From: Chitinophagales bacterium
GTDB taxonomy: Bacteria; Bacteroidota; Bacteroidia; Chitinophagales; JADIYW01
Assembly (NCBI GenBank): GCA_019694955.1
Contig: JAIBAX010000025.1
Location: forward strand, 1-63,228
Length of the DNA: 63,228 nucleotides
Reading direction: 5' to 3'
Below the pieces are notes generated by a model, which was given only the letters and a program-made list of their open reading frames with translations, did no database searches and was not told the DNA's origin. How positions within the stretch are numbered: position 1 is the stretch's first letter; each line of letters opens with the position of its first letter. The position numbers and the translations under genes were made by a program. Below are positions 10,567-19,684 of the stretch, piece by piece.

Positions 10567-13194
10567 TTATTCTTTAATAAATTTTTGAACATAACTTTTT
10601 CCATTCTTTTGAATGCCACTAATAAAATATGTGCCGGGAGATAAGGTGCTGATATCGATTGGGCTGCCGGAAATATAATTGGATTGTTCTAGCACTTTTT
10701 GTCCATTGCTATTGCTTATATGTATTTCCCATTGTATGCCTTCTGAATCTTTTAATATTATCTGATTGTGAGCCGGATTCGGCAATGTCGTAATATTTGT
10801 CATAAGTTGCTGATGAAGGCTCGTTGGAAGGCTGCTTTTTCCTTTAATTATATAGGTTTTTATCTTCGCCAGAGAAAACGGCACGGCACCTATATTTGTC
10901 AATTTTATGTTGATTTGCTCCTTATCTTTTGTGAATGTTGACGGAATCATATAATATTCTTCCCTAAGTTTGACAAAAGGATTCTTGCCTCCAGAATACC
11001 ATGTGCCCACTTTTAGACCATCTACATACACATCAAAAGCCTGATTAAGGATGCTATAATCGAATATTCTTTGAAGCCTAACGCCATCATTTCCGGGAAG
11101 TATTTTTAGATTAAATTGAATAGAATCGGTGGTTATATAGTCCAAGAATGAAAAAAGAATATTGTCATTATCTCCTTCAAATGTTCCTGAAAGTAGGGAA
11201 GGTGTGCCATTATATCTTACCTGATGGTTGGCAACCTGCGTTTCACTGGCAAAATCTATACTGTCGGTTAAAATAGTTTGTGCAGTGTCTTTTAAGTAAA
11301 AAAAGGTTGTTGCCACGTAGTTGACATCCCAATTGTTGAATTCCCCATGCTCTAAGCCAAAAACACCGTGGTGCAAAAAGCTTATCGGATCGGTAATATG
11401 GTAGCGATACATGGCCCTGTCTTCATAAAATTGCGCTGAAAGACCATGGACGGGTTTATTAAAGGGTCCGGTGTAAAAATAAAAGCCTCCATTGAAATAA
11501 TCTTCTGTGCCGGTGCCGTGTATTTGTGGCGTTTTATTATCGTCCAAATAGAATCTTTCATCACCTTCCAACCACCAATATTTTTCGGGATTGCGTCCTT
11601 CAAGTGTGATGCCTACATACTTACCCCAACCTTGTATATCAGCAAAATTAAAATCAATACTGTCTTGCGTCAACGTATCTCTATAAAAGCTATGGAAATA
11701 ACCAACACTTGTAAAGTCATTGTTGAATACATCACTGCTGATAACATATTTAATTCCGTGTAAAGTAGCATTTCCTTTGTTTTCTAGATATATCTTGCAA
11801 TTTTGCTCAAAAGGCATGGACCAAAAGGCATATAGATTTTTTTGATCATCAACGCCTGTAGGAATCATTTTTACTTCTACAGCATCCATCGTTCCCAACC
11901 CAAAAAATGCACCAACAGGGCAGTTTACAGAAGGATTCGGCTGATTGTTCCAAAAGATTTTAATGAATGTATTTTTAAGGATGTCTTCATTTTTTTGTCG
12001 GATAAAATCCGGTGTGATGATGCCAATTGAATAGGTTCTATACCAAATCTTTTCTGTAATAGAATAATTATGTGCTTCCTCATCTGTAGTATTACCTACA
12101 TCCAAAGAATCGGTATATACGCCATCACAGTATGTCCAATAATAAAATTCATTGGTTGCATTTCCCTCATCATAAGTAGATCTAATTTCTATACTGGTTT
12201 TTCCTTGTGTCAACCTTTTTGGAATACGGATGGGTGATTCAGCAAATTTTTCTATCTTTTCTAAACCGTTTAAAGTCCAAAAAGCCACTAATGAGTCATC
12301 GGCAAATATCTTTACCCGTTGCACTCCTGCGGGGTAATACCATCTTTTTATAAGATATACCGTATCTGCATTCGGATCGATATTCATGGTGAATTTAGTA
12401 CGCCCTTTATATGCTCTTCCATCGTCGGTAATTATTTTGCTATCGTACGAAAAATCTAATTCCGGAAAGTTGATTTTTATTTCCTCAATCGATTTTTTAC
12501 CACTTATATCTGCAATTTTTATCTGTTCACTTTTTTCCAAACCAATGATTTCTCCAGTAGATAGGGTATAATCGCTATTGTCTTTTGGATTGATGCCTGT
12601 TGGGGTGAAATAGGTTTCTAATGCACCTACATCCGTATTTTCTGAGAAGTCTTCAATGATAGAGTCCGGTAAAAACTTCCTATAGCCGATGTGATAAAAT
12701 GCGGTACTGTCTTGAGTAAGGGTAATTTTTACCGACTGGGAAAACGGAATCGGTAAATAGCTGATATATCCTCCGCTATTACTGGTGAATTCGAAAGATA
12801 AGGGCGAAGAATAAGGTTCAGAAGGTTGCTGGAAATAGGCATAAAATGGTTTGTCAATATCAGGAGTGGTAGCGCCATTGAAGTAAAACCTAAGGTGCGC
12901 TGTACTGTCTATCCATGTCATCCACATCCTGTCTATTATACCGGGAGAATTGACCTCACAGAGAACAAATTCTCGAGTTAAATCTCCGGAAACGGCATTG
13001 GCTTGTTCATACAAGAAATTTCCATTGTCGATGCCATCTCTATTCCTCCCTTTAGGGTCATGGCTGTCATCTTGCCCGGAGAGTTGATTGTACTGTAAGT
13101 ACGGAAGGTCTTGTAAGAGGCGATCATAACTTTGACCATTCACGACACTTGTTGTGAGGAAACAAAAAATATATAATATGTAATTTTTAATCAT
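10567..13194 (-). CDS. DUF2961 (GH172-like) secreted protein with T9SS C-terminal sorting domain
   Basis: 875 residues. A signal peptide (about 1-20, ending VVNGQ) is followed by the DUF2961 core with SGDLTREFVLCEVNSPGIIDRMW near the N-terminus. Later come the EGDERFYLDDN and GTGTEDYFNGGFYFY segments that hold acidic residues of the family's active site. DUF2961 proteins belong to glycoside hydrolase family 172, which includes difructose dianhydride I synthase/hydrolase and arabinofuranosidase-type enzymes, so a fructan or arabinan substrate is possible. The last 75 residues (TLPNPAHNQIIL ... SPGTYFISGIQ ... KFIKE) are a type A T9SS sorting domain, which indicates surface display or release. 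It stands alone, without SusC/D partners nearby. Confidence 0.82.
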   Translation of the reverse strand: MIKNYILYIFCFLTTSVVNGQSYDRLLQDLPYLQYNQLSGQDDSHDPKGRNRDGIDNGNFLYEQANAVSGDLTREFVLCEVNSPGIIDRMWMTWIDSTAHLRFYFNGATTPDIDKPFYAYFQQPSEPYSSPLSFEFTSNSGGYISYLPIPFSQSVKITLTQDSTAFYHIGYRKFLPDSIIEDFSENTDVGALETYFTPTGINPKDNSDYTLSTGEIIGLEKSEQIKIADISGKKSIEEIKINFPELDFSYDSKIITDDGRAYKGRTKFTMNIDPNADTVYLIKRWYYPAGVQRVKIFADDSLVAFWTLNGLEKIEKFAESPIRIPKRLTQGKTSIEIRSTYDEGNATNEFYYWTYCDGVYTDSLDVGNTTDEEAHNYSITEKIWYRTYSIGIITPDFIRQKNEDILKNTFIKIFWNNQPNPSVNCPVGAFFGLGTMDAVEVKMIPTGVDDQKNLYAFWSMPFEQNCKIYLENKGNATLHGIKYVISSDVFNNDFTSVGYFHSFYRDTLTQDSIDFNFADIQGWGKYVGITLEGRNPEKYWWLEGDERFYLDDNKTPQIHGTGTEDYFNGGFYFYTGPFNKPVHGLSAQFYEDRAMYRYHITDPISFLHHGVFGLEHGEFNNWDVNYVATTFFYLKDTAQTILTDSIDFASETQVANHQVRYNGTPSLLSGTFEGDNDNILFSFLDYITTDSIQFNLKILPGNDGVRLQRIFDYSILNQAFDVYVDGLKVGTWYSGGKNPFVKLREEYYMIPSTFTKDKEQINIKLTNIGAVPFSLAKIKTYIIKGKSSLPTSLHQQLMTNITTLPNPAHNQIILKDSEGIQWEIHISNSNGQKVLEQSNYISGSPIDISTLSPGTYFISGIQKNGKSYVQKFIKE

Positions 13195-16027: not shown

Positions 16028-16265
16028 GACACAAAATTAATTGTTCACATCCATCTAAATGTGTATTCCACTTTTTTAAATCATTAAATTATCTTACCTC
16101 CGCAATAAAGTGCTTGTTTTTTGCCGACAATCCCTGAAAAATGTAATTGTATCTCTATGAAATTGTTATCATTTTTGTAGAATAATAAGTTTGTATAAAA
16201 AAGATTTTATTTTGTCTACGCTAATAAATATTAAAAAAGATGTTCGTTTTAAACATAATCAGATA

Positions 16266-17786
16266 ATGCTGCCACAGTCTTTTTTCGCATACCTCAACTC
16301 TCAAAAGATAGAAAGCTTTAAGGAGGCACTAACCAAGTTAACGCCATACTCGGAAGATACCCAATTGTTTGATTTAGATCATTTTCTTATTGGTTACAAC
16401 AGTTACCTCAGCCACAATCACTATTACTATGATTCAGCCAGCGGTCAAGCGTTTTTTATCGTTGGAAAATGTTATAACCTAGACTTTATTTTCGAAGGAT
16501 TTTACGGTATTACAAAAAAAACTGCTGCCGAAAAATTCTTTATCTTATATCAAAGATATGGTGTAGATATTGTGGCTTCACTAAAAGGAAGGTTTTGTAT
16601 TTGTATTTTTAATGAAGCAAAAAATATCCTTGATGTTTGTACAGATATCAATGGTCAATTTCCTGTGTTTTATGTTCAAAATGGTGAAGAATTGTTTCTG
16701 ACATCAGAATTAAAAGCATTTGTCGGTACAGATATTTTACCCATAAAGCTCATTAATCGTGCTGCATTTTTAAAATTCGACCAGCATCAGCAAGATTATT
16801 CATTTTTAAAAGGATTTAAGAAGGTCATTCCCGGTAGACATTATCGATTTAAGCTTTCTGAGAATAAGATAAGCATTCAAAGTACGGTATTTCGGCAAAT
16901 ACAAATCGGGCAAAACCAGCTTTCCTTTCAGCAAGCAAAGGATAAGATATATGAATTACTGAATAATTATGTGCAGCTAATGGTTGCTTCAGACACACGT
17001 GTCGGCGTGCCGCTTTCTGGAGGGTTGGATAGTGGAATTATTGCTGCTTTAACGGCTAAACATGCAAAGCAGGTAAAGTCGTTTACTATTGGGACGGCAC
17101 TTGGAAACGAATTCCAACAAGCTAAAGAAACGGCAGATTTTTTAGGAACTACTCATGAAGAAATTTTTATCGAAGAAACAACATATTTTCAATCTGTTCT
17201 ACATGGAATATATTTGAATGAGTTTGCTCATCCCGTTTACGCAGAAGGTTTCCCTGGATTTTACCACGTATTGAAAACAGGACACGAACAGGTAGATCTT
17301 TTTTTAACCGGTTATGGTGCCGACCTTCTCTTAGGGGATATTTATCACTTAGAGGATAAAAGCACTATCGCAAAGATTTCTGAGCAATCTTGCTTCCATA
17401 CCGCCTGGACGGGTGAGTTTTCTCCTTTTATTCCTAGATTTTTTAATACCGAACTTGTTCACCCTTTCTGGCAGTTGGACTTAATCAATCTTTCTATTTC
17501 ATTGCCTTCAACCTATAAATATCTCCAGGACGAAGTTAAATATGTGCTTCGGGAAATGGCCGTAGAAAAGGGACTTTTACAATATGATTTGGCATGGCGA
17601 AAGAAAACTGCGTTTAATGTCGGTTCTTCTATGGATAAACTATTGGCAATGATTCTCGGAATAACAGACTATAAAGATTATCAAACGAAAGGGATGTTTC
17701 TATACCATGTGTTGGAAAATATGTTCTCATCGCAACAGCCCTTTGATGAATGGAATTATAAAGATTTAACCACTTTTAAAAAATAA
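16266..17786 (+). CDS. carA: Carbapenam synthetase / beta-lactam synthetase-like enzyme (CarA-like)
   Basis: 506 residues from ATG 16266. An in-frame TTG at 16191 is possible, but MLPQSFFAYL aligns with the N-terminus of beta-lactam synthetase, and CarA is about 503 residues. The protein is of the asparagine synthetase B fold: an N-terminal Ntn-like domain (1-215) without the glutaminase Cys, then an ATP-pyrophosphatase domain with PLSGGLDSG (P-loop, 249-257). What separates it from asparagine synthetase is the beta-lactam-forming triad: Y350 in LTGYGAD, E384 in TGEFSP and K447 in WRKK. CarA has Y345, E380 and K443, and the E-to-K distance (63) is identical. HPFW (399-402), EVKYVLRE and YQTK also match CarA as I recall it. 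It would use ATP to close a beta-lactam ring on a carboxymethylproline-type beta-amino acid. A CarB-like gene follows four bases later. Confidence 0.9.
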   Translation: MLPQSFFAYLNSQKIESFKEALTKLTPYSEDTQLFDLDHFLIGYNSYLSHNHYYYDSASGQAFFIVGKCYNLDFIFEGFYGITKKTAAEKFFILYQRYGVDIVASLKGRFCICIFNEAKNILDVCTDINGQFPVFYVQNGEELFLTSELKAFVGTDILPIKLINRAAFLKFDQHQQDYSFLKGFKKVIPGRHYRFKLSENKISIQSTVFRQIQIGQNQLSFQQAKDKIYELLNNYVQLMVASDTRVGVPLSGGLDSGIIAALTAKHAKQVKSFTIGTALGNEFQQAKETADFLGTTHEEIFIEETTYFQSVLHGIYLNEFAHPVYAEGFPGFYHVLKTGHEQVDLFLTGYGADLLLGDIYHLEDKSTIAKISEQSCFHTAWTGEFSPFIPRFFNTELVHPFWQLDLINLSISLPSTYKYLQDEVKYVLREMAVEKGLLQYDLAWRKKTAFNVGSSMDKLLAMILGITDYKDYQTKGMFLYHVLENMFSSQQPFDEWNYKDLTTFKK

Positions 17787-17790
17787 CATT

Positions 17791-18540
17791 ATGATGCTGA
17801 TAAAAGAAATCCACGACCAAGTAATGGTGTTGACTTTCAACCATGAAAAACCGCAAAATCCATTTAGCGATGCTTTGCAAGAAAGTGTTTTGAATGCACT
17901 GTCAGAAGCTGAAAGCGATGATAATATTCTCGCAGTAGTACTCTATGGTGGACAAGATAGGTCTTTTAGCGTTGGTGGTGATTTCAAAGAAATAATTGAC
18001 AAATCTACTTATGAAATAGTCAGTAAGGCACTGGCGCAAGTGGTGGATTTTTATATCAGCATTTTAAAAATTACCAAACCGGTATTGGCGGCCATTGATC
18101 ATTATTGTATTGGCATGGGTTTTCAGGTATCTTTATGTGTCGATTATCGCGTAGTGAGTGATCGTGCTAAATTTATTATGCCGGAGTTGAAAAATGGAGT
18201 TGCCTGTACTTTAGGTGGGCTGATGTTAGAAAACTTGGTAGGCAGATTGCACATGATTCCAATATGTTTTGATGGCGAAAGAATACCTTTGGAGGACTGT
18301 AAACGCTTCGGTATCGCCAATGAAATTACCTTGGCAGAAGATGTGTTGGAACGTACCATTGCAAAAGCTAAGTACTATGGTAGCTTTCCCAGTGTCGCTT
18401 TTCGTGGTACAAAAAGAGTAAACAATGCTCGATTCATAGCTGCTTTAGAAGCTGTAAAGCAAGATACAATTGATGTACACTTCTCCGTTTTCGATAGTCA
18501 GCAACATCGGAAACATATGGAGAATATCCTGTCGAAATAA
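17791..18540 (+). CDS. carB: Carboxymethylproline synthase-like crotonase (CarB-like)
   Basis: 249 residues (CarB has 250). The crotonase fold shows NPFSDALQ, VVLYGGQDRSFSVGGDF, IGMGFQ and MPELKNGV, which parallel CarB segment by segment. Residues I recall as functional in Pectobacterium CarB (oxyanion-hole Gly62 and Met108, Glu131, His229) correspond to G63, M109, E132 and H230 here, a constant offset of one. CarB decarboxylates malonyl-CoA and adds the enolate to pyrroline-5-carboxylate, giving (2S,5S)-carboxymethylproline. A generic enoyl-CoA hydratase would carry two catalytic Glu residues and would not sit beside a CarA homologue. It begins four bases after the CarA-like stop; ATG 17794 is an alternative start. 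Confidence 0.9.
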   Translation: MMLIKEIHDQVMVLTFNHEKPQNPFSDALQESVLNALSEAESDDNILAVVLYGGQDRSFSVGGDFKEIIDKSTYEIVSKALAQVVDFYISILKITKPVLAAIDHYCIGMGFQVSLCVDYRVVSDRAKFIMPELKNGVACTLGGLMLENLVGRLHMIPICFDGERIPLEDCKRFGIANEITLAEDVLERTIAKAKYYGSFPSVAFRGTKRVNNARFIAALEAVKQDTIDVHFSVFDSQQHRKHMENILSK

Positions 18541-18574: not shown

Positions 18575-19684
18575 ATGAAGTATGTTCGAATGCCAATAGA
18601 GATAGAGTCGCCTGAACAAATGGGGTATGACGCTATCCGGTGTAACCTTACGGAGAGTTCTGTGAGAGACTTAAGCTTTGAAGATTTAAATATTGACTTA
18701 AATGAGTTGGTCATATGTTATGGACATCATGTAGGGAAGCCGGAATTGCGGGCATTGATTGCGAAGGATAACCAAGGTATTGAAACAGAAGATGTCTTAT
18801 TAACAACAGGAGCAGCAGGCGCCTTATTTATCATTCATACATCTTTATTATCTGCTGACGATCACTTGATTGTTATGCGACCCAATTATGGTACCAATAT
18901 TGAAACGCCTAAGGCTTTAGGATGTGCTACCACTTATATCGATTTGGATATTGCAAATGGTTTTAAGGCGAATATTGATGCTTTTCGAGCAGCGATACAA
19001 CCCAATACCAAGCTCATTAGCATCACGACTCCGCATAATCCCACCGGGGTTTCTTTGACGTTAGCGGAATTACAAGAACTGATAGCGTTGGGTGCTGCTA
19101 ACAAAATCCCAGTTTTAGTGGATGAAACTTATCGGGAAATACCCATTGGAAAAACACCTTTACCGATGGCGGCATCATTGAGTGAATGGGCTATCAGCAT
19201 CTGCTCATTATCAAAATCTTATGGTCTGCCGGGGATAAGATTGGGGTGGTTGGCGACAAAGAACAAAGTGCTGCTTGAAACCTTTTTAGCCGCAAAGGAG
19301 CAAATATATATATGTAATTCAGTGGTTGATGAAGAAATTGCCTATCAAGCTATGTTGCATAAGGAAGCGATTTTAGCAAAGATACGCCATGATATTCAAA
19401 TAAATTTCAACCATGTCATCCAATGGTTGGCACAGGAAAAGCGCTTAGATTGTGTATTGCCCGATGGGGGCGTGGTGGTGTTCCCAAGAATTAAAGTACC
19501 TATTGATATTAATAAATTTTATCGCGTTTTAAATGAGGATTTAGGCACTTATGTCGGACCGGGACATTGGTTTGAGATGGATAAAACATATTTTAGATTG
19601 GGCTTTGGCTGGCCAACAGAAACAGAGCTGCTCGAAGGCTTGGCAAATATTAGTAAGGCATTAGATAGGACGGTAATAGTATAA
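18575..19684 (+). CDS. PLP-dependent fold type I aminotransferase, third gene of the CarA/CarB-like cluster
   Basis: 369 residues from ATG 18575, which is 34 bases after the CarB-like stop. An upstream in-frame start at 18470 would overlap that gene and adds no family sequence. Aminotransferase class I/II landmarks are N155 (PHNPTG), D183 and Y186 (VDETY), the Schiff-base lysine K214 (SLSKSYGLPGIRLGW) and R222. The general look is that of the capreomycidine synthase / aspartate aminotransferase group, but the substrate cannot be read. No aminotransferase belongs to the known car operon. Here it could make an amino-acid semialdehyde or imine for the CarB-like enzyme, or act on the product (inference). 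Spacing and strand support a single operon. Confidence 0.85.
   Translation: MKYVRMPIEIESPEQMGYDAIRCNLTESSVRDLSFEDLNIDLNELVICYGHHVGKPELRALIAKDNQGIETEDVLLTTGAAGALFIIHTSLLSADDHLIVMRPNYGTNIETPKALGCATTYIDLDIANGFKANIDAFRAAIQPNTKLISITTPHNPTGVSLTLAELQELIALGAANKIPVLVDETYREIPIGKTPLPMAASLSEWAISICSLSKSYGLPGIRLGWLATKNKVLLETFLAAKEQIYICNSVVDEEIAYQAMLHKEAILAKIRHDIQINFNHVIQWLAQEKRLDCVLPDGGVVVFPRIKVPIDINKFYRVLNEDLGTYVGPGHWFEMDKTYFRLGFGWPTETELLEGLANISKALDRTVIV

What the first reader, a model, noticed from the sequence alone, without database searches (positions are those of the whole stretch)
16266..18540. CarA/CarB-like carbapenam pathway genes in a Bacteroidota chromosome
Two adjacent genes encode a carbapenam synthetase-like and a carboxymethylproline synthase-like enzyme. 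The CarA-like protein has Y350, E384 and K447, matching the CarA triad Y345/E380/K443 with the same E-K distance. The CarB-like protein has G63, M109, E132 and H230, matching CarB G62/M108/E131/H229 with a constant offset of one. Lengths (506 and 249) equal those of the reference enzymes. The two known steps together make a carbapenam, a bicyclic beta-lactam. I know of no characterised beta-lactam pathway in this phylum.
Basis: partly seen in the sequence, partly recalled or inferred. Interest (0 to 1): 0.95.

Follow-up and report, generated by a model that had tools for sequence, protein, structure and literature searches.

The report
Split carbapenem-type pathway in Bacteroidota
Two neighbouring genes in a Bacteroidota genome encode relatives of the two enzymes that build the carbapenem antibiotic core, and the same genome carries a carbapenem-synthase-like gene cluster on another contig, so this bacterium is predicted to make a carbapenem-type beta-lactam, possibly with a side chain put on earlier than in the known pathways.

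Summary

Beyond the finding, the same genome has an unlinked gene set (contig C6): CarC-like oxygenase, membrane acyltransferase, acyl-CoA ligase, second CarB, carboxyltransferase. In relative G004, carB-carA and carC-acyltransferase-ligase-carboxyltransferase lie side by side. carA, carB and carC-like occur in the same 3 of 13 family genomes. So the pair is likely half of a split carbapenem-type pathway.

The window CarB has Ala where CarB and ThnE have Trp79; engineered CarB W79A accepts bulky 2-alkylmalonyl-CoA. With the carboxyltransferase this suggests a C-6-substituted carbapenam made at the CarB step (inferred). The aminotransferase-like gene downstream is probably not part.

Limits: no activity or product tested; the Pfam CarA_N profile is not matched; no carD-H-like ORFs in the stretches tested; Trp79 is also lost in other CarB clades. 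A monobactam cluster is already known in the phylum.

The parts
16266..17786 (+). carA-like gene: carbapenam-3-carboxylate synthetase homologue, 506 aa; N-terminal amidotransferase-type domain without the Cys after Met, plus ATP-pyrophosphatase domain with Y350, E384, K447
   Evidence: Best PDB hit CarA 207 bits; tree; triad and N terminus; model and fold search; start shared with P0002
17791..18540 (+). carB-like gene: carboxymethylproline synthase homologue, 249 aa; G63/M109, E132, H230; Ala80 at the place of CarB Trp79
   Evidence: Best PDB hit CarB 184 bits; tree; residue tables
16186..16193 (+). TAAGTTTG, a match to the Bacteroidota -7 promoter consensus TAnnTTTG (consensus recalled, chance not estimated); it covers the alternative TTG start, so the ATG at 16266 is the likelier start
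   Evidence: Sequence read, position
18575..19684 (+). PLP-dependent aminotransferase-like gene (VioD/GntC/PRK07324 relatives), 34 bases after carB; neighbour, probably not a pathway part
   Evidence: Families; matches in 5 of 13 family genomes, 3 of them without carA, and none in carA-bearing G004

Best explanation
The window carries carA-like and carB-like genes that are predicted to form half of a carbapenem-type pathway, with CarC-like and accessory genes on other contigs of the same genome, and the product is likely a carbapenem-type bicyclic beta-lactam. Inferred steps: (1) the carboxyltransferase of the C6 gene set, with a biotin carboxylase that I did not look for, would make malonyl-CoA or a 2-substituted malonyl-CoA from an acyl-CoA that the ligase of the set may supply; (2) the CarB-like enzyme would decarboxylate it to an enolate held by G63/M109 and add it to pyrroline-5-carboxylate, giving (6-substituted) carboxymethylproline; (3) the CarA-like enzyme would adenylate that beta-amino acid with ATP and close the beta-lactam ring with the help of Y350, E384 and K447, giving a carbapenam; (4) a CarC-like Fe/2-oxoglutarate oxygenase (contig C6 or C96) would invert C5 and desaturate C2-C3 to the carbapenem; (5) the membrane acyltransferase would decorate the product. 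Shown here: gene content, residues, tree positions, predicted folds, co-occurrence. Not shown: any activity, substrate or product.
Against: The Pfam model CarA_N (PF09147) is not matched by the window protein, nor by its relatives P0002, L004 and L005, while P0009 and P0010 match it. ORFs of 100 aa or more downstream of carC in a Pectobacterium carotovorum locus (where carD-H would be) found no homologue in 7 stretches of the three family genomes (the whole genomes were not searched for them). CarC-like proteins are only 22-23% identical to CarC, over long branches. The genes lie on three or four contigs in this genome. Position 79 is Tyr in G004 and Leu in carB2, and Trp is also missing in 25 of 34 rows of the sister clade and 12 of 17 of another group, so its loss is not tied to the carboxyltransferase. 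The carboxyltransferases score close to ordinary propionyl-CoA carboxylase subunits.
Confidence: 0.78

Rival explanations
1. A plain carbapenem pathway: CarB uses unsubstituted malonyl-CoA, the carboxyltransferase only raises the malonyl-CoA pool, and ligase plus acyltransferase act on the finished ring. (This shares the carbapenem reading with the best explanation and differs in the side chain.)
For: CarB residues G62, M108, E131 and H229 are all kept. Ligase next to CarC-like also occurs in L033 (Myxococcales) and L042 (Mycolicibacterium MAG) with a hexapeptide acyltransferase and no carboxyltransferase hit, which fits late acylation. Trp79 is also lost in other CarB clades.
Against: Trp79, kept in 14 of 14 proteobacterial CarB rows and in 5o34, is absent from 44 of 44 rows of the window's CarB clade, 17 of them Ala. 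A carboxyltransferase lies with car genes in each of the three family genomes.
Confidence: 0.4
2. The CarA-like enzyme closes another ring or amide (not a beta-lactam) on a CarB product, so the pathway makes a non-beta-lactam bicycle.
For: The CarA clade is deep and lacks a CarA_N match. Relatives of this fold make amides other than beta-lactams (asparagine synthetase, TsnB9; listed).
Against: Tyr/Glu/Lys triad and CarB and CarC partners are kept; the model is closer to CarA than to the other solved structures compared.
Confidence: 0.12
3. A decaying or silent remnant: carA-carB survives but the pathway no longer works because its genes were scattered.
For: carA and carC-like genes lie on different contigs here, and one carC-like and one carboxyltransferase gene stand apart from car genes (C96, C24).
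Against: The frames are open with catalytic residues kept; close relatives P0001 and P0002 exist (98% and 74%); GC of carA and carB (36.0, 39.1%) is like the window (37.2%).
Confidence: 0.06
4. Ordinary primary metabolism: an asparagine synthetase and an enoyl-CoA hydratase that happen to be neighbours.
For: General Pfam families match (PF00733, PF00378).
Against: Trees, missing N-terminal Cys, Tyr instead of Asp in the triad, fold ranking, co-occurrence with CarC-like.
Confidence: 0.01

Closest known systems
carABC of Pectobacterium carotovorum, (5R)-carbapen-2-em-3-carboxylate pathway
   Same: CarA, CarB and CarC homologues; catalytic residues of the three; carA directly before carB
   Different: CarC-like gene unlinked in this genome and divergent in G004; no carD-H-like ORFs in the stretches tested; carboxyltransferase, ligase and membrane acyltransferase added; about 27% (CarA) and 22-23% (CarC) identity; Trp79 of CarB replaced
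Thienamycin pathway ThnE/ThnM, Streptomyces cattleya
   Same: CarB/CarA-type first two steps (PMC6097109, passages); 5o34 carries Gly and Val at 107 and 153, the ThnE numbers given in PMC6542682, so it is likely ThnE
   Different: Thienamycin has no close CarC homologue (PMC6097109, passages) and natural C-6 side chains are likely added late (PMC6542682, section 4), for asparenomycin by TokK (PMC9692996, passage); here CarC-like is present and a CarB-step origin is proposed
Beta-lactam synthetase (clavulanic acid)
   Different: 74 bits against 207 for CarA; makes a monocyclic beta-lactam from another substrate (PMC6097109, passages)
Monobactam cluster BGC0001672 (SQ 28,332), Flexibacter sp.
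   Same: Beta-lactam pathway in the same phylum (PMC9248904, section 5 part 1)
   Different: Monobactam, not a carbapenem; the sequence was not compared here
CarB-ligase clusters of L031 (Bdellovibrionales), L032 and L033 (Myxococcales), L038 and L040 (Planctomycetota), L041 (delta-proteobacterial MAG), L042 (Mycolicibacterium MAG)
   Same: CarB of the sister clade; acyl-CoA ligase in 7 of 7; in the six loci other than L031 a CarC-like oxygenase that scores 170-316 bits with this family's CarC-like profile, where Pectobacterium-type CarC scores 114-126, and groups with it
   Different: Hexapeptide acyltransferase instead of the membrane one in the 3 loci examined (L033, L041, L042); no carboxyltransferase hit; CarA found in 3 of these 7 stretches; no CarC-like hit in L031

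Membership tests
   Y350/E384/K447; YEK in 64 of 73 CarA-type rows, D at the Tyr place in 17 of 17 AsnB-like rows (4 of the 22 CarA ORFs were left out: L017, L019, L029, L043). 7 of the 9 exceptions are P0050-P0056, which lie outside the CarA/BLS group; the others are P0016 and L041 (cut by the locus end)
Carbapenam-3-carboxylate synthetase (CarA) | No N-terminal Cys nucleophile (glutaminase lost) | tested here: met
   Starts MLPQSFF; a Met-Cys-Gly/Ala motif was found near the start of 17 of 17 AsnB-like controls
Carbapenam-3-carboxylate synthetase (CarA) | Pfam CarA_N domain (PF09147) | tested here: not met
   No match in the window protein, P0002, L004 or L005; match in controls P0009 and P0010
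Carbapenam-3-carboxylate synthetase (CarA) | Grouping with CarA and apart from AsnB in a tree and by fold | tested here: met
   (SH-aLRT 99, 72-row CarA/BLS group; quick tree)
Carbapenam-3-carboxylate synthetase (CarA) | ATP-dependent formation of carbapenam from carboxymethylproline | not testable with these tools
   Needs purified enzyme
Carboxymethylproline synthase (CarB/ThnE) | Oxyanion-hole Gly62/Met108 (Val in ThnE), Glu131, His229 | tested here: met
   G63, M109, E132, H230
Carboxymethylproline synthase (CarB/ThnE) | Grouping with CarB apart from enoyl-CoA hydratases | tested here: met
   114-row group at SH-aLRT 99 (quick tree, no bootstrap)
Carboxymethylproline synthase (CarB/ThnE) | Malonyl-CoA plus pyrroline-5-carboxylate to carboxymethylproline | not testable with these tools
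   Needs purified enzyme
carABCDEFGH operon (C3C pathway) | CarC homologue with Fe triad and Tyr165 in the same genome | tested here: met
   Two CarC-like genes in G000, C6 and C96; HD..H and Tyr kept; that they act as CarC is untested
carABCDEFGH operon (C3C pathway) | carC-carH downstream of carA-carB | tested here: not met
   Next gene is an aminotransferase-like gene; no hit of ORFs (100 aa or more) of L053 after carC in 7 family stretches
Asparagine synthetase B | Cys2 glutaminase nucleophile and AsnB-type sequence | tested here: not met
   TIGR01536 scores 152 bits, cut-off 267; no Cys; outside the AsnB-like rows

The most novel reading that the evidence does not exclude
A carbapenem pathway of Bacteroidota that installs the C-6 side chain at the first committed step: a pathway carboxyltransferase makes a 2-substituted malonyl-CoA, and a natural 'W79A' CarB condenses it with pyrroline-5-carboxylate, so CarA and CarC then yield a C-6-substituted carbapenem without late radical-SAM methylation. 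If true, nature already runs the route that chemists built by mutating CarB.
Probability: 0.35. Interest if true: 0.88.

Novelty: new variant of a known kind. Interest (0 to 1): 0.74.

Why it matters
Carbapenems are used against multidrug-resistant infections, are made by chemical synthesis, and depend for activity on their substitution pattern (PMC6542682, section 4). The same section says natural C-6 side chains are likely added late. This genome offers a CarB with the substitution (Ala for Trp79) that engineers introduced to accept substituted malonyl-CoA, in a genome with genes that could supply such units.

Tried and rejected
Aminotransferase as a third pathway gene: rejected as likely, because it matches in 5 of 13 family genomes, 3 without carA, and not in carA-bearing G004; I considered a cyclodehydratase role from its GntC/VioD similarity (below both cut-offs) and have no support for it.

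Ligase as a replacement for CarA: stretches L032, L033, L038 and L040 have CarB, ligase and CarC-like but no CarA hit. Not followed further; a CarA gene may lie outside the stretch or be too divergent for the profile.

Carboxyltransferases: pairwise BLAST did not separate the car-linked ones from an ordinary propionyl-CoA carboxylase-type protein of G007 (34-43% identity either way), so their substrate cannot be read from sequence here.

Ligase in G011: not listed at E 1e-50; the gene is cut at the contig edge (127 aa).

Trp79: I first read its loss as a mark of the window's clade; the table shows it lost in other CarB clades too (W in 9 of 34 and 5 of 17 rows). For that I set the odds of the novel case at 0.35 instead of 0.38 and raised the plain-malonyl rival from 0.35 to 0.40. 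110 of the 136 tree rows are in that table; hydratase-like rows and second CarB-like copies of L015, L037, L039 and L043 are not.

Literature searches by gene name were swamped by carbon, caragana and carbamoyl-phosphate papers; narrower ones listed no Bacteroidota carbapenem. PMC12482188 was searched for Thn/Car names with no hit. One search listed papers on TokK/ThnK, of which one was opened for passages.

Trees are quick ones (SH-aLRT, no bootstrap) and flag long branches; the order of deep CarA branches and the place of BLS are open.

Not tested: self-resistance genes, exporters, biotin carboxylase, pyrroline-5-carboxylate supply.

Full report
WHAT IS THERE. The window (contig C92 of genome G000, 4.14 Mb in 103 contigs) has two ORFs at the stated place: 16266-17786 (+, 506 aa) and 17791-18540 (+, 249 aa), 4 bases apart. 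A TTG start 75 bases upstream is possible, but a TAAGTTTG box at 16186-16193 (consensus recalled) covers it, and relative P0002 begins at the same Met. GC of the genes is like the window (36.0, 39.1 and 37.2%), and a nearby gene carries a Bacteroidota-type secretion tail (10567-13194, PF18962). The genome's family includes G011 and G004, whose car contigs have the lengths and car loci of JADLAH010000024.1 (Chitinophagales bacterium SJ120) and JAGQYE010000041.1 (Bacteroidetes bacterium HKST-UBA57).

CARB. The second protein scores 184 bits with CarB (2a7k) and 157 with 5o34, which carries Gly and Val at ThnE's positions 107 and 153; the next hydratase has 92. In a 136-row tree CarB, 5o34 and the window protein are in one 114-row group (99), hydratases outside, and the window falls in a 44-row clade (97) with the family's other CarB proteins. 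G62, M108, E131 and H229 are kept.

CO-OCCURRENCE. A CarA profile search matched 80 of 396 genomes of the order at E 1e-40, but only 3 (G000, G011, G004) score 592-742 bits; the other listed matches are 168 or less over part of the profile. In the family, 13 genomes: CarB-type in 3, CarC-like in 3, the same three. The C6-type acyltransferase scores 391 or more in the same three and 223 or less elsewhere. The aminotransferase-like gene downstream of carB matches in 5 of 13 and not in G004, so it is probably a neighbour only. Carboxyltransferases are in 13 of 13 and do not separate by score. The ligase matched in 2 of 13 at E 1e-50 (G000, G004), the G011 copy being cut.

POSITION 79. CarB W79F/A/Y/S variants took ethylmalonyl-CoA, and W79A took bulkier 2-alkylmalonyl-CoA (PMC6542682, passages). 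In 14 of 14 proteobacterial CarB rows and in 5o34 this residue is Trp; in the 44-row clade it is Ala 17, Tyr 9, Leu 8, Val 4, Thr 3, Met 2, Phe 1, never Trp; the window and G011 have Ala, G004 Tyr, carB2 Leu. Trp is not universal elsewhere: 9 of 34 rows of the sister clade and 5 of 17 of a mixed group have it. With a carboxyltransferase beside car genes in each of the three genomes, I infer that CarB here takes a substituted malonyl-CoA. The same paper says natural C-6 chains are likely added late (section 4). A plain malonyl-CoA role is not excluded.

WIDER CONTEXT. A scan of the genome-contig collection gave 60 loci, of which 35 hold a CarB-type ORF (33 scored at 200 bits or more, plus L010 and L012, scored there as L005 and L004); 21 of the 35 have a CarA hit in the fetched stretch. 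Stretches with CarB, ligase and a CarC-like oxygenase that groups with this family's occur in Myxococcales (L032, L033), Planctomycetota (L038, L040), a delta-proteobacterial MAG (L041) and a Mycolicibacterium MAG (L042). Of three examined, all have a hexapeptide acyltransferase; L041 and L042 have a MacB/FtsX-type permease and L033 a cytochrome P450. L031 (Bdellovibrionales) has CarB, ligase and CarA.

PRIOR WORK. A survey of 600 Bacteroidetes genomes lists a monobactam cluster in one Flexibacter strain (PMC9248904, section 5 part 1). Searches listed no paper on a carbapenem pathway in the phylum; the lists are capped and the library holds open-licence papers only.

VERDICT. The finding is real and larger than reported. 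I file it as a new variant of a known kind: CarA/CarB/CarC chemistry (inferred) in Bacteroidota, split over contigs, with carboxyltransferase, ligase and acyltransferase added. Activity and product are untested.

Noticed in passing
P0007, P0008, P0011, P0013: Single proteins of 787-806 aa join a CarA-type and a CarB-type enzyme; one record (P0011) is labelled Brachionus plicatilis (a rotifer), which may be horizontal transfer or contamination.
   Followed up: partly
L032, L033, L038, L040, L041, L042: CarB - ligase - CarC-like clusters in Myxococcales, Planctomycetota and other MAGs, not known to me from any paper; four of the six (L032, L033, L038, L040) show no CarA hit in the fetched stretch.
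   Followed up: partly
L016, L023, L028, L036: Bradyrhizobium loci carry two CarB-type genes, the second with Asp and Ala at the places of Gly62 and Met108 and, in 3 of 4, without the His, and no CarA hit in the stretch.
   Followed up: no
L011, L013: Bacillota (Anaerobacterium, Pelosinus) have carB directly before a very divergent carA-type gene.
   Followed up: no
L009 6065-6850 (+): The lone CarC-like gene of the window's genome is nearer to Pectobacterium CarC (107 bits) than the C6 copy (61 bits), so it may be the true epimerase/desaturase.
   Followed up: partly
L004 803-3250 (-): A penicillin-amidase family gene (664 bits) lies about 5 kb from the car genes of G004; whether it is linked in function is unknown.
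   Followed up: no
L008 2933-4309 (-): ORF of 458 aa, hydrophobic to the eye, overlapping the carboxyltransferase gene at the end of the C6 run; no Pfam or NCBIfam match.
   Followed up: no
window 18575-19684: PLP enzyme nearest to PRK07324, guanitoxin GntC and capreomycidine synthase VioD, below their cut-offs; function open.
   Followed up: partly
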